64,000 nt of DNA from assembly GCA_009781005.1 (NCBI GenBank), contig WQYX01000009.1, positions 1-64,000 on the forward strand, read 5' to 3'. Positions within the stretch are counted from its first letter, which is position 1. The number at the start of each line of letters is the position of its first letter. Shown here piece after piece: positions 14,788 through 49,100 of the stretch. The translations under genes and the position numbers were made by a program. The notes below the pieces were generated by a model, which searched no databases, had not been told where the DNA came from, and saw nothing but the letters and a program-made list of their open reading frames with translations. This DNA is from Polyangiaceae bacterium (lineage in GTDB: Bacteria; Myxococcota_A; Polyangia; Polyangiales; Polyangiaceae).

Positions 14788-15512
14788 ACAATGATATTTA
14801 CGAGTCGCTTGGCGAACGTTGGTATACGGCAAAGGACGATCCGGTTGCGCTGCTGCGCGCGGAATCAGCGCATCGCATCCCCTGGGTGACAAAGAAGATC
14901 GAAGAGGTCTTCGGCCCCACGCCCGCGCACGTGCTCGACGTCGGCTGCGGCGCGGGTTTCCTGTCGAACGCTCTCGCCCAGCGCAACCATCACGTCATCG
15001 GCGTCGATGCATCGGCAGGCAGCCTTGCCGTGGCTCGCCGCCACGACAGCACGAAGACCGTACGCTACGAGCTCGCCGACGCGCACGCGTTGCCGTTCGC
15101 CAAGGACACCTTCGATGTTGCATGCGCGATGGACTTCCTCGAGCACGTGGAAGAGCCCGCGCGCGTCATCGTCGAGATCGCACGCGTTCTGAGGCCGGGT
15201 GGCCTCTTCTTCTTTCACACCTTCAACCGGACACGGCTTGCATGGCTCATTGCCATCAAGGGCGTGGAATGGTTCGTGAGAAACACCCCCCGTGATTTGC
15301 ACGTGCTCCGGCTTTTTCTCAATCCAAAATCGGTAAGCGCGATGTGCGAAGCAAACGGAATGGTCATCAAAGAATTGCGCGGCTGCCGCCCAGTCGTATC
15401 CAAATCTTTCTTGCGAATGCTCATGACGGGCGTCGTGCCAAGCGATTTCGCATTCACGTTTACGCCCTCCACGCGCATCGCCTACATGGGAATGGCAGAA
15501 CGCGTTTGCTAA
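14745..15512 (+). CDS. UbiG-like SAM-dependent O-methyltransferase
   Basis: Class I SAM methyltransferase of 255 aa starting at the ATG at 14745, inside the end of the previous gene. Motif I is VLDVGCGAGFLSNALA, motif II ELADAHALPFAKDTFDVACAMDFLEHV, then the UbiG-specific HTFNRTRLAWLIAIKGVEW. UbiG methylates phenolic hydroxyls during ubiquinone biosynthesis. Beside a type III PKS it more likely methylates the resorcinol or quinone product, but a ubiquinone or menaquinone role cannot be ruled out from sequence. Confidence 0.88.
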   Translation: MATTSATTTPAPLINNDIYESLGERWYTAKDDPVALLRAESAHRIPWVTKKIEEVFGPTPAHVLDVGCGAGFLSNALAQRNHHVIGVDASAGSLAVARRHDSTKTVRYELADAHALPFAKDTFDVACAMDFLEHVEEPARVIVEIARVLRPGGLFFFHTFNRTRLAWLIAIKGVEWFVRNTPRDLHVLRLFLNPKSVSAMCEANGMVIKELRGCRPVVSKSFLRMLMTGVVPSDFAFTFTPSTRIAYMGMAERVC

Positions 15513-15734
15513 CCTGCTGCGCGCCGCACGTACAGGCGATCGCGGTCCTCGCCATAGGTTTCGCCGCATCACACATGACGAGCTTCTGCCATCGGAGGGT
15601 AGAAATCGGGTGCAGCCGTTGTTGCGAGCGATGCGCCGTCTGCGTCGCAACGCCGATCGTCGTCGCGTCATCGGACACGTCGCATTCCACTTCAATGTCG
15701 ACCGCTTGACGGTCCCAAACACTCGGAATAACTC

Positions 15735-39485: not shown

Positions 39486-40178
39486 CTATAATCTAATTGC
39501 CATAAAAGAGGCGATCCGGTCGAGCACCAGGGCGACGACGGCGAGCAGACCGAGCGCGCGGACGGGCGCGAAAAGGGCGTGAACTTGCGCGGGACTCGCG
39601 GCGCGCGCGATGAGCGCGAAGGCGACTTCGAGCACGATCGCAGCGATGAGAACAGGCCCTCCAATGGCAACCGCGAGGCCAATGCCGGACGCAAGATCAT
39701 GCGCCACGGCAGCCGCGGGGTGCGCGGACGGCGGGGCGGTCGTGAGGGCTTCGGCCGCGCGCGATGCTCCGCCGTTGGCGAGAAAGACGACGCTGGCAAA
39801 AAGCGAGAGCAGCACGCCGAAGCTCGATGCTCGTTCTTCAACGACGGCGAGGCCCGGCCCGACGGGCGAGCCACGAAGTACGTCGACGAGCCCGCCCGCC
39901 ATGGTCGCGACCCAAAGCGGAATTGCGGCAGCGAGAGCGACGGGCAAGCCCAAGATGATCTGTTCGAGCGCCGAGAGCACCCACGGCAGCGAGCGTTCGG
40001 CGTTCACGACGGGCAAAAGGGATGGATAGATCGCGGCGGCAAGCGCGAGACCGAGGATTGCACGCGCCGGCATCGGCAACGCCTTGAGACCGAACGCGGG
40101 CACGAGCACGACGGTCGGCATGGCGCGCGCCCACGCGAGACCGATCGCAGCGAGATCATCCGTTGGCGGGAGATCCAT
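39486..40178 (-). CDS. SctT/FliR-family export apparatus protein
   Basis: 230 aa from ATG 40178, with about six hydrophobic helices. The pattern matches FliR/SctT: AWARAMPTVVLVPAFGLKALPMPARAILGLALAAAIYP near the start, then LEQIILGLPVALAAAIPLWVATMAGGLVD, and a final LIARAASPAQVHALFAPVRALGLLAVVALVLDRI. FliR/SctT forms the core export gate of flagellar and type III secretion systems. Slightly short for the family (about 260). No other export-gate genes lie next to it. An ACCGCTTTC solo end lies 10 bp upstream. Confidence 0.8.
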   Translation of the reverse strand: MDLPPTDDLAAIGLAWARAMPTVVLVPAFGLKALPMPARAILGLALAAAIYPSLLPVVNAERSLPWVLSALEQIILGLPVALAAAIPLWVATMAGGLVDVLRGSPVGPGLAVVEERASSFGVLLSLFASVVFLANGGASRAAEALTTAPPSAHPAAAVAHDLASGIGLAVAIGGPVLIAAIVLEVAFALIARAASPAQVHALFAPVRALGLLAVVALVLDRIASFMAIRL

Positions 40179-40187
40179 CACGCCATG

Positions 40188-40210
40188 CTCTATACCGCTT
40201 TCGAGTTGAC
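40188..40210. repeat. solo end of the ACCGCTTTC element
   Basis: TATACCGCTTTCGAGTTGAC between the divergent SctT-like and MaoC genes, matching the terminal repeat of the full copies. Confidence 0.6.
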
Positions 40211-40244
40211 GGTCATTTGCTTCCATGATCATGTCAATCGAATC

Positions 40245-44837: not shown

Positions 44838-46022
44838 ATGGCGCTCGCCCCTGTCTACATCGTTTCGGCCACCCGTACTGCGATTGGCAGCTACCTCGGA
44901 TCGCTGTCGTCGATCACGGCGCCACAGCTCGGCGCTGCCGTGATCAAGTCCGCTCTCGAGCGCGCGAGAGTTTCTCCTGACGACGTCGGCGAGGTGTTCA
45001 TGGGCAACGTCTTGTCGGCAGGCATCGGCCAGGCGCCCGCACGCCAAGCCATGCGCTTCGCGGGATTGCCCGACGCCGTTGCTGCAACGACCGTGAACAA
45101 GGTGTGCGGCTCCGGGATGCAGTCCTTGATCTTCGGCGCGAAGACGATCGCTCTCGGCGACGAAGACATCGTCGTGGCAGGCGGCATGGAGTCGATGTCG
45201 AACGTTCCTTACTATGCAATGCAGGCGCGCCAGGGTTACCGCATGGGCAACGCCACGCTCGTCGACGGGATGATCCACGACGGTCTCTGGGATCCGTACG
45301 CAAACGTCCACATGGGAACGTGCGGCGACAAGTGTGCCAAGGAATACAAGGTCACGCGGGAAGAGCAGGACGAATTCGCGAAAGAGAGCTTTCGCAAAGC
45401 GCTCTCCGCACAAAAAGATGGCCTCTTCGACAGAGAGATCACGCCTGTCGCCGTCCCGCAGCGCAAGGGTGATCCGATTATGGTGAAGCTCGACGAAGGT
45501 CCGTCAAAGGGCGATCCATCGAAGATTGGCGGCCTCAAACCGGCGTTCGCGAAAGACGGCACGATCACCGCGGCCAATGCCTCGTCGATCAACGACGGCG
45601 CAAGCGCGCTCGTCCTTGCGAGCGAGGCAGCGGTGAAGAAGCACCATCTGTCACCGCTCGCGCGCATCCTTGGCTACGGCGGCGCAGCGCAGGCGCCCGA
45701 ATGGTTCACCACGGCACCCGTGAAAGCGATCGACACGACGCTCGCCAAGCTCGGTCTCAAGGTGGACGACATCGATCTCGTCGAGATCAACGAAGCCTTT
45801 GCCGTCGTCGCCATGGTGAGCGCGCGGCTTTCGAAGATCGATCTCGCGAAGGTGAACGTTCGCGGCGGTGCCGTGGCGCTCGGTCACCCGATCGGCGCGA
45901 GCGGCGCGCGCATCGTGACAACCATGCTCCACGCACTCGAGGACATGAACAAGAAGCGCGGTCTCGCGGCGATCTGCATTGGCGGTGGCGAGGCGCTCGC
46001 CATGGTCGTCGAGCGCGTCTGA
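44838..46022 (+). CDS. acetyl-CoA C-acetyltransferase (thiolase)
   Basis: 394 aa with AAGGAG just upstream of ATG 44838. Biosynthetic-type thiolase that condenses or cleaves acetoacetyl-CoA. Active-site Cys in NKVCGSGMQS near residue 90, and C-terminal catalytic signatures NEAFAVVAMVSA, GGAVALGHPIGASGARI and CIGGGEALAMV, with His and second Cys present. First gene of a run of five on this strand, followed 4 bp later by an MBL hydrolase. Confidence 0.95.
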   Translation: MALAPVYIVSATRTAIGSYLGSLSSITAPQLGAAVIKSALERARVSPDDVGEVFMGNVLSAGIGQAPARQAMRFAGLPDAVAATTVNKVCGSGMQSLIFGAKTIALGDEDIVVAGGMESMSNVPYYAMQARQGYRMGNATLVDGMIHDGLWDPYANVHMGTCGDKCAKEYKVTREEQDEFAKESFRKALSAQKDGLFDREITPVAVPQRKGDPIMVKLDEGPSKGDPSKIGGLKPAFAKDGTITAANASSINDGASALVLASEAAVKKHHLSPLARILGYGGAAQAPEWFTTAPVKAIDTTLAKLGLKVDDIDLVEINEAFAVVAMVSARLSKIDLAKVNVRGGAVALGHPIGASGARIVTTMLHALEDMNKKRGLAAICIGGGEALAMVVERV

Positions 46023-46895: not shown

Positions 46896-46931
46896 TGTTT
46901 TGCGGCTGTGTGGGAGCGGACATTCCTCGGT

Positions 46932-47114
46932 ATGAGCGTGATCGTCGGTCTCGGCCTCGACGCTGCCGTCGCCGCGCTGCCTGAGGAGCGAAGGGGCACA
47001 GCGGCCAAGCTCATCGCGTACCTGTCGGATCCGCGCAAACAAGTCCGCGCGCGAGCCATGGCGCTCGTCATGCAGGAGCTCGCAGAGTCCATCTCGGAGA
47101 TCACCATCCGATGA
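46932..47114 (+). CDS. small helical protein ahead of the SctL/FliH-like gene
   Basis: 60 aa (SVIVGLGLDAAVAALPEERRG, AKLIAYLSDPRKQVRARAMALVMQELAES). An ATG at 46932 is chosen; the frame extends to 46908. It overlaps the next gene start by 4 bp (ATGA), a strong hint of coupling. Similar in size to small chaperone-like or stalk proteins, but no family recognised. Confidence 0.55.
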   Translation: MSVIVGLGLDAAVAALPEERRGTAAKLIAYLSDPRKQVRARAMALVMQELAESISEITIR

Positions 47115-47776
47115 GCATCGAACGCGCGCGGATCATCAAGGGCACCCGAGACCCGTCGCCCGCCGTGGATGTGGATCCACCGGTTCTCTTCGCTCGGCGC
47201 ATTCCGAAGGCATTGGCCGACGCACACGAAGAAGCTTCGAGGATCGTGGCGAAGGCAAACGAGAGGGCATCCGAGATCATCGGAGAGGCGCGCGCGTCGG
47301 TCGCGCACATTGCAGCCGAAGCATCGATGGAGGCACGCGAGCAAGAGATCGCAAAGCTCGCCGCCGAGCTCCTCGTCGTTCGCGCGGCCGAAGAAGTGCG
47401 ACGCGAGCAAGAGATGGATCGAACGATCGAGATGGCGGTTCTTCTCGCCGAGCGAATCATCGGCGAAGCGTTGCGCATCGATCCAGGGCGCATCGCGTTC
47501 GTTGCCGCCGAAGCGCTTCGCGAGACGCGCGGGGCCCGCCAGCTCCGCATCGAGGCAAACCCGGACGACGTCGCAGCGCTCCATGCGGCGCTCGAAATCC
47601 TGGGGGCTGAGGTCGCGAACGTCGTGCAAAATCGCGAACTATGTCGCGGCTCGCTCGTCGTGCACACCGAACTTGGGCGCGTCGACGCGCGCGTCAGGCC
47701 ACAGCTTGCGCGTCTCGCGGACGCGCTGCGTGAGGCCTTGCGTTCTCCGGCGTCGGCGCGGAGCAGACCAGGATGA
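47111..47776 (+). CDS. SctL/FliH-family stator protein
   Basis: 221 aa. An N-terminal long coiled coil (ADAHEEASRIVAKANERASEIIG, AREQEIAKLAAELLVVRAA) is followed by the FliH/SctL/V-ATPase-E-like C-terminal domain: AVLLAERIIGEALRIDPGRI, LRIEANPDDVAALHAALEIL, ELCRGSLVVHTELGRVDARV. In flagella and type III secretion this protein binds and regulates the FliI/SctN ATPase. No ATPase or ring genes are next to it; it is overlapped on both sides by the small ORF and the M50 gene. Confidence 0.82.
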   Translation: MSIERARIIKGTRDPSPAVDVDPPVLFARRIPKALADAHEEASRIVAKANERASEIIGEARASVAHIAAEASMEAREQEIAKLAAELLVVRAAEEVRREQEMDRTIEMAVLLAERIIGEALRIDPGRIAFVAAEALRETRGARQLRIEANPDDVAALHAALEILGAEVANVVQNRELCRGSLVVHTELGRVDARVRPQLARLADALREALRSPASARSRPG

Positions 47777-48910: not shown

Positions 48911-48938
48911 AGCCATGCAACCAAAAGGTTGCATGGCT
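48911..48938 (+). terminator. perfect 12-bp hairpin after the M50 gene
   Basis: AGCCATGCAACC, loop AAAA, GGTTGCATGGCT, starting 2 bp after the stop codon. No T-run follows, but stem length and position make it a likely transcript end. Confidence 0.7.
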
Positions 48939-48955
48939 GGTGGGTCCCTCAAACT

Positions 48956-49100
48956 AGAACGCGTTTGATAACCGTCGCGAGCGGCGCGAGGCCAAGGCGG
49001 GCCCGAGGAGCCCGCGTAAGCGTACGTTGTGGTACGTGCGCAGGCACCGCAGGGTCCAACGAAGGCATCGCGCCGCGCAGCAGGTTAGCAAACGCGTTCT
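48956..49100 (-). repeat. 145-bp AGAACGCGTT element, copy D (short form, reverse orientation)
   Basis: Ends AGAACGCGTTTGATAACC and GGTTAGCAAACGCGTTCT pair over 17 of 18 bases, yet differ at six or more positions from copy B, so paired changes have occurred. Core GTACGTGCGCAGGCACCGCA and GAGGAGCCCGCGTAAGCG matches copies A-C. It overlaps the purS stop codon (TAG, 49099-49101) by two bases. Confidence 0.9.

What the first reader, a model, noticed from the sequence alone, without database searches (positions are those of the whole stretch)
46932..47776. SctL/FliH-like gene embedded in a thiolase-MBL-M50 operon
A stator-type protein overlaps a 60-aa ORF upstream (ATGA) and a site-2 protease gene downstream (ATGA), with a thiolase and MBL hydrolase before them. 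FliH-like genes normally sit beside the ATPase gene. The link of an export stator with intramembrane proteolysis is unusual.
Basis: partly seen in the sequence, partly recalled or inferred. Interest (0 to 1): 0.6.

Follow-up and report, generated by a model that had tools for sequence, protein, structure and literature searches.

The report
Stator of a scattered secretion machine
This gene is the stator part (SctL) of a type III protein-secretion machine whose nine core genes, normally found side by side, have each moved to a separate place in the chromosomes of one order of mostly predatory soil bacteria; this one has stayed joined to a membrane-protease gene in every genome searched that has both.

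Summary
Window 47111-47776 is a genuine SctL/FliH stator in a tight five-gene run: thiolase, MBL hydrolase, ORF X, SctL, M50 protease. X is 68 aa from GTG 46908, not 60 aa; it is conserved, under purifying selection and confidently predicted as four helices. In 58 Polyangiales genomes, SctL and its M50 neighbour are adjacent in all 36 that encode both; thiolase and MBL are shared only within the window's family. The missing ATPase neighbour has a larger cause: SctL belongs to a non-flagellar T3SS whose nine core genes (R,S,T,U,V,N,J,Q,L) occur once each in the window's genome, at separate loci. Two single-contig genomes (12.2 and 10.3 Mb) rule out an assembly artefact. SctT lies in this window too, 7 kb away. 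Dispersed SctVs form a clade apart from flagellar FlhA and the clustered Myxococcus T3SSs. SctL tracks the T3SS; M50 does not, persisting without SctL where the system is absent. So the machine is coherent, but a dedicated stator-protease function is unproven. Verdict: new variant of a known kind, a fully dispersed Myxo-type NF-T3SS. I found no description of it in the papers searched.

The parts
47111..47776 (+). SctL/FliH stator gene (221 aa), the finding
   Evidence: Pfam FliH 1.9e-12 over cut-off; SctL profile hits FliH 5b0o 1.4e-11; 28% identical end to end to the SctL beside SctN in a Myxococcus T3SS cluster
46908..47114 (+).
   Evidence: conserved N-terminus and frame; purifying selection; AlphaFold pLDDT 93, four helices
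47773..48909 (+). M50 site-2-type intramembrane metalloprotease (378 aa); overlaps sctL by 4 nt (ATGA)
   Evidence: Pfam Peptidase_M50 2.6e-21; HExxH H66/E67/H70 and N194/P197/D202 invariant in 29 orthologues
39486..40232 (-). SctT export-gate gene of the same dispersed T3SS; start codon uncertain (ATG at 40232 or 40178)
   Evidence: PF01311 hit 39498-40151; NCBIfam SctT 83 bits against flagellar FliR 45 bits
46026..46895 (+). MBL-fold hydrolase with winged-helix tail; operon context only
   Evidence: Pfam Lactamase_B 7e-25 and BLACT_WH 3.2e-13; upstream of SctL only in the window's family
44838..46022 (+). acetyl-CoA acetyltransferase (thiolase); operon context only
   Evidence: NCBIfam TIGR01930 441 bits over its cut-off; conserved only within the window's family

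Best explanation
The gene is sctL, the peripheral-stalk stator of a non-flagellar type III secretion apparatus inherited vertically in Polyangiales, whose core genes have been dispersed over the chromosome. Shown: SctL identity; nine core components each encoded once in the window's genome at separate loci; non-flagellar type of SctV and SctT; one SctV clade; X-SctL-M50 conservation; M50 catalytic residues conserved. Inferred: SctL dimers bridge the SctN ATPase (contig C81) to the SctQ ring and the export gate, as in other T3SSs; the apparatus is an inner-membrane exporter of the Myxo, needle-less type, perhaps used in prey contact; sctL is expressed from a housekeeping-like operon, and the overlap with M50 reflects translational coupling and co-expression rather than a dedicated T3SS protease. 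X sits where fliG/sctK sits in other systems and is probably a sorting-platform adaptor for SctL.
For: SctL. Components in G000: V, N, R, U, T, J, Q, S, all on different contigs except T and L (both in this window). Single-contig G030: R 1.07, T 1.22, S 1.75, U 4.24, V 4.50, J 4.76, N 8.14, L 10.92, Q 11.10 Mb. Single-contig G047: U 1.96, J 5.48, S-T 5.75, V 5.80, L 6.25, R 7.98, Q 9.10, N 9.79 Mb. NF type: SctV model 674 bits against FlhA 557; SctT 83 against FliR 45; SctJ hits score like short YscJ-type proteins, about 34-95 bits, against over 200 for the flagellar FliFs of relatives. Tree: dispersed SctVs group together, the window's family 100% SH-aLRT. Co-occurrence of SctL with NF-type SctJ: 40 both, 6 SctJ only, 1 SctL only, 11 neither, Fisher p 6e-7. 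M50 kept without SctL where the T3SS is absent.
Against: No experiment shows that the dispersed parts assemble. The needle, secretin, SctD and effectors were not searched for. The Fisher test ignores phylogeny. The clade joining all dispersed SctVs has only 90-94% SH-aLRT and includes long branches. The identity of X is not established.
Confidence: 0.78

Rival explanations
1. Dedicated stator-protease module: M50 acts on the T3SS, for example by cleaving a membrane-bound regulator or clearing unassembled export-gate subunits, and this fixes the gene pair.
For: 36 of 36 co-adjacency, mostly overlapping, across several families whose flanking genes differ; M50 active-site residues invariant.
Against: The orthologous M50 persists in at least seven searched Polyangiales genomes with no NF-T3SS and no SctL, and in Polyangium and Sorangium records without SctL, so it has a T3SS-independent role; Myxococcus encodes SctL beside SctN, not M50.
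Confidence: 0.15
2. Decaying T3SS: the dispersed genes are remnants of a system falling apart, and SctL has been reused elsewhere, for example as an accessory stalk protein of another ATPase.
For: Loss of clustering; several lineages have lost the system; SctV of the window's family lacks about 40-50 residues; X is shortened in the window's family.
Against: All nine core parts are retained, single-copy and open in the window's genome; SctL is under purifying selection; SctL co-occurs with the rest of the system; the loci have conserved neighbours.
Confidence: 0.1
3. Chance adjacency of a flagellar FliH with unrelated genes.
For: Thiolase and MBL are not conserved neighbours outside the family.
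Against: Adjacency is conserved in 36 of 36 genomes; the window's genome has no second SctV, SctR or SctT and so no flagellar export set.
Confidence: 0.02

Closest known systems
Myxo NF-T3SS, short and long loci of Cystobacterineae (Abby and Rocha 2012, PMC3459982), including the Myxococcus xanthus needleless T3SS* cluster mxan_2434-2464 (PMC12075869)
   Same: Same phylum, same core export parts, NF-type SctV, SctT and SctJ, FliO-like gene beside SctR; SctL of the Myxococcus cluster is the closest match (5e-39 with the SctL profile; 28% identity)
   Different: Those genes are clustered with SctL beside SctN; here every core gene is at its own locus and SctL is beside M50; SctV forms a separate clade
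Scattered Chlamydiales NF-T3SS (described in PMC3459982)
   Same: T3SS genes split over several loci and vertically inherited
   Different: Chlamydial genes form multi-gene blocks in at least four loci and include a secretin; here there is nearly one core gene per locus
Flagellar FliH
   Same: Same Pfam family and C-terminal ATPase-binding region
   Different: No flagellar SctV-class gene in this genome; the flagellar FliH found in some relatives is a separate gene beside FliI
Site-2 proteases (family M50)
   Same: HExxH and N-P-LDGG motifs
   Different: No PDB homologue by profile at E 0.01; no known M50 operon with a T3SS stator found in the papers searched

Membership tests
SctL/FliH stator | sequence family match over curated cut-off | tested here: met
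   Pfam FliH 47.7 bits, cut-off 24.1. NCBIfam equivalog cut-offs for FliH and SctL are not reached, so it is divergent
SctL/FliH stator | coiled-coil stalk plus C-terminal ATPase-binding domain, homologous to ATPase b/E subunits | tested here: met
   profile hits FliH C-terminal domain 5b0o 1.4e-11, F-ATPase b 1.2e-5, V-ATPase E 2.7e-5; no model of SctL was made
SctL/FliH stator | binds SctN/FliI ATPase | not testable with these tools
   SctN is encoded elsewhere in the genome (C81)
non-flagellar T3SS | core genes R,S,T,U,V,N,J,Q,L present | tested here: met
   all nine in G000, once each
non-flagellar T3SS | SctV, SctT and SctJ of NF type rather than flagellar | tested here: met
   HrcV model over FlhA, SctT model over FliR; 256-aa SctJ with lipoprotein-like N-terminus
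non-flagellar T3SS | genes clustered in one or a few loci | tested here: not met
   nine loci; closest pair in single-contig G030 is about 150 kb apart
needleless T3SS* (Myxococcus) | no secretin, needle or translocon | not tested
needleless T3SS* (Myxococcus) | SctV orthologous to either Myxococcus locus | tested here: inconclusive
   separate clade; order among NF clades weakly supported
M50 site-2 protease | HExxH and NxxPxxxLDGG active-site motifs | tested here: met
   invariant in 29 orthologues
SctK/FliG (for ORF X) | sequence or fold match | tested here: inconclusive
   no family hit for X; FliG chains only at background level in the fold searches; a weak FliG_C hit, E 0.0014, below cut-off, only in the gene at that position in Myxococcus, which shows no similarity to X

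The most novel reading that the evidence does not exclude
A complete, functioning T3SS maintained over an entire bacterial order with nearly every core gene at its own locus, in which the stator is translationally coupled to an intramembrane protease that helps build or regulate the export gate.
Probability: 0.15. Interest if true: 0.85.

Novelty: new variant of a known kind. Interest (0 to 1): 0.6.

Why it matters
Type III systems are normally found by looking for gene clusters, so a dispersed one can be missed: a 2024 survey reported at least half of the Myxococcus T3SS homologues only in Myxococcaceae bins (PMC11821767), and the Myxo NF-T3SS was described from Cystobacterineae alone (PMC3459982). 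Here most searched Polyangiales encode one. This would extend the needle-less T3SS, already tied to prey lysis in Myxococcus, to a second large lineage, and raises a testable question: how does a machine with fixed stoichiometry assemble when its genes are expressed from about nine unrelated loci?

Tried and rejected
Chance adjacency: rejected (36 of 36). Flagellar FliH: rejected, no flagellar export set in this genome. M50 as a T3SS-only protease: unlikely, since it is kept without the T3SS. Thiolase and MBL as part of the system: rejected, family-limited. Identity of X: Pfam and NCBIfam gave nothing usable; Foldseek and VIA-align on the short model (pLDDT 93) and a long homologue model (pLDDT 79) gave no significant match; hhalign of short against long X is weak (E 0.009, probability 4.5%), though the first four helices fall in the same order and place; long X against Myxococcus X gave nothing. 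phmmer of SctL alone against the PDB gave only noise; the profile was needed. Literature searches for a Polyangiales T3SS or a stator-protease operon found none.

Full report
What is there. A single transcript is inferred from the spacing, not shown. X starts at GTG 46908 and is 68 aa: the extra eight residues (MWERTFLG) are conserved as MWxRxFVA in relatives. The 221-aa product at 47111-47776 is a FliH/SctL protein by Pfam and by a profile of 31 orthologues that hits solved FliH and the b/E stalk subunits of rotary ATPases.

Is the order conserved? The search covered 58 genomes of the same genus, family and order. After setting aside flagellar FliH paralogues, 41 carry this SctL (one, G040, found only by the profile). 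An orthologous M50 lies directly downstream in 36 of them. In the other five the contig ends (G012) or no orthologous M50 was found in the genome (G013, G036, G041, G043). So wherever both genes were found they are adjacent, 36 of 36 (my count). SctL and M50 overlap in at least 23 of the 32 loci measured, 18 of them by exactly ATGA. Thiolase and MBL accompany the pair in much of the window's own family but not in the other families, and PurS/PurC follow only in part of it. The pair is thus conserved against a changing background. By name, relatives include Polyangiaceae and Labilithrix-type MAGs.

Why there is no ATPase neighbour. Profile searches for each core T3SS component found exactly one copy of each in the window's genome, at separate places: SctV C22, SctN C81, SctR C89, SctU C61, SctT C9, inside this window at 39498-40151, SctJ C98, SctQ C8, SctS C19. 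Two relatives assembled as single contigs show the same: in G030 (12.2 Mb) no two of the nine genes lie closer than about 150 kb; in G047 (10.3 Mb) only SctS and SctT are adjacent and the next closest pair is about 51 kb apart. Outside the window's family SctS and SctT are usually still neighbours, so that family has gone one step further. The nearness of SctT and SctL in this window is not shared by G009, G030, G031 or G047 and looks accidental.

What kind of T3SS. SctV and SctT score better with the non-flagellar than with the flagellar NCBIfam models, and SctJ is of the short, lipoprotein-like type. Some relatives also carry a flagellar set with a long FliF; this genome does not. In a SctV tree the dispersed copies group together, apart from flagellar FlhA and from the two clustered systems of Myxococcus dinghuensis and kin (the window's family has 100% support, the deeper joins 90-94%). 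In M. dinghuensis the closest SctL sits in the canonical place beside SctN. The dispersed genes have conserved neighbours of their own: DnaJ by SctN (also in G047 and G036), a FliO-like gene by SctR, and within the family ddl and a PP2C-like gene by SctV, Obg by SctU, an ABC (Mla-like) ATPase by SctJ (the neighbour names are my reading of the sequences). These arrangements are therefore old and stable, not recent debris.

Does SctL belong to it? Across the 58 genomes, SctL and the NF-type SctJ go together: 40 both, 6 SctJ only, 1 SctL only, 11 neither (Fisher p 6e-7; not corrected for phylogeny). The single SctL-only genome is a 970-contig assembly with other parts of the system. M50 behaves differently: seven genomes with no NF-T3SS (G014, G015, G024, G029, G034, G039, G048) keep a close M50 orthologue but have no SctL beside it, as do Polyangium and Sorangium records.

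ORF X. It precedes SctL in most loci where that flank could be read, as about 64-86 aa in the window's family and about 125-240 aa in others. It is under purifying selection. The short form is predicted at pLDDT 93 as four helices, and the long form begins with four helices in matching places, though the profile match between the two is weak. No known fold or family stands out. Its position is that of fliG or sctK in other systems; that is a lead, not a test. In Myxococcus the gene at that position has a sub-threshold FliG_C hit, but it shows no similarity to X.

How it most likely works. SctL should bridge the SctN ATPase to the SctQ ring and the export gate, as established for FliH/SctL; X is a likely partner at the same platform. 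The system probably resembles the needle-less T3SS* of Myxococcus, which acts in prey lysis (PMC12075869), but secretin, needle and effectors were not tested here. The coupling with M50 most likely reflects co-expression from a housekeeping-like operon.

Known or new. The Myxo NF-T3SS has been described as clustered loci in Cystobacterineae, and Chlamydiales split theirs into a few blocks (PMC3459982). A 2024 survey credited at least half of the Myxococcus T3SS homologues only to Myxococcaceae bins (PMC11821767). FliO in Myxococcota NF-T3SSs has been noted (PMC12403147). I found no report of a one-gene-per-locus T3SS or of a stator-M50 operon; the library is open-access only, and the 2022 Cell Reports paper on T3SS* was not readable here. 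I rate it a new variant of a known kind.

Noticed in passing
window 39486-40232 (-): SctT, a second gene of the same dispersed T3SS, lies 7 kb from SctL; the nearness is not shared by G009, G030, G031 or G047.
   Followed up: yes
window 48957-49099, and 15499-15514: About 143-bp element with terminal inverted repeats AACGCGTTTGNTAACC between the M50 and PurS genes; a third repeat end lies at 15.5 kb (3 matches, 0 expected). A similar end seems to occur on contig C81 (L132). Looks like a small mobile repeat.
   Followed up: partly
window 48912-48939: Perfect 12-bp stem with a 4-nt loop (AGCCATGCAACC AAAA GGTTGCATGGCT) right after the M50 stop codon, with no T-run.
   Followed up: no
L171 5006-5377 (contig C89 of the window's genome): FliO-like gene directly upstream of SctR, conserved in relatives including G036.
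   Followed up: partly
L131 3455-3490 (SctV), also G047: SctV of the window's family and of G047 lacks about 40-50 residues at the start of the cytoplasmic domain (profile positions about 400-455 missing).
   Followed up: no
L262 (record BNCN01000017.1): A genome labelled Comamonas sp. KCTC 72670 carries two SctVs that group with Myxococcus and Citreicoccus; the record is probably a mislabelled myxobacterium.
   Followed up: no
L236/L319 (MAG labelled Polyangium aurulentum): Thiolase-MBL-M50 run with X and SctL absent; the M50 is divergent (39% identity). This genome has only a flagellar-type SctV.
   Followed up: partly
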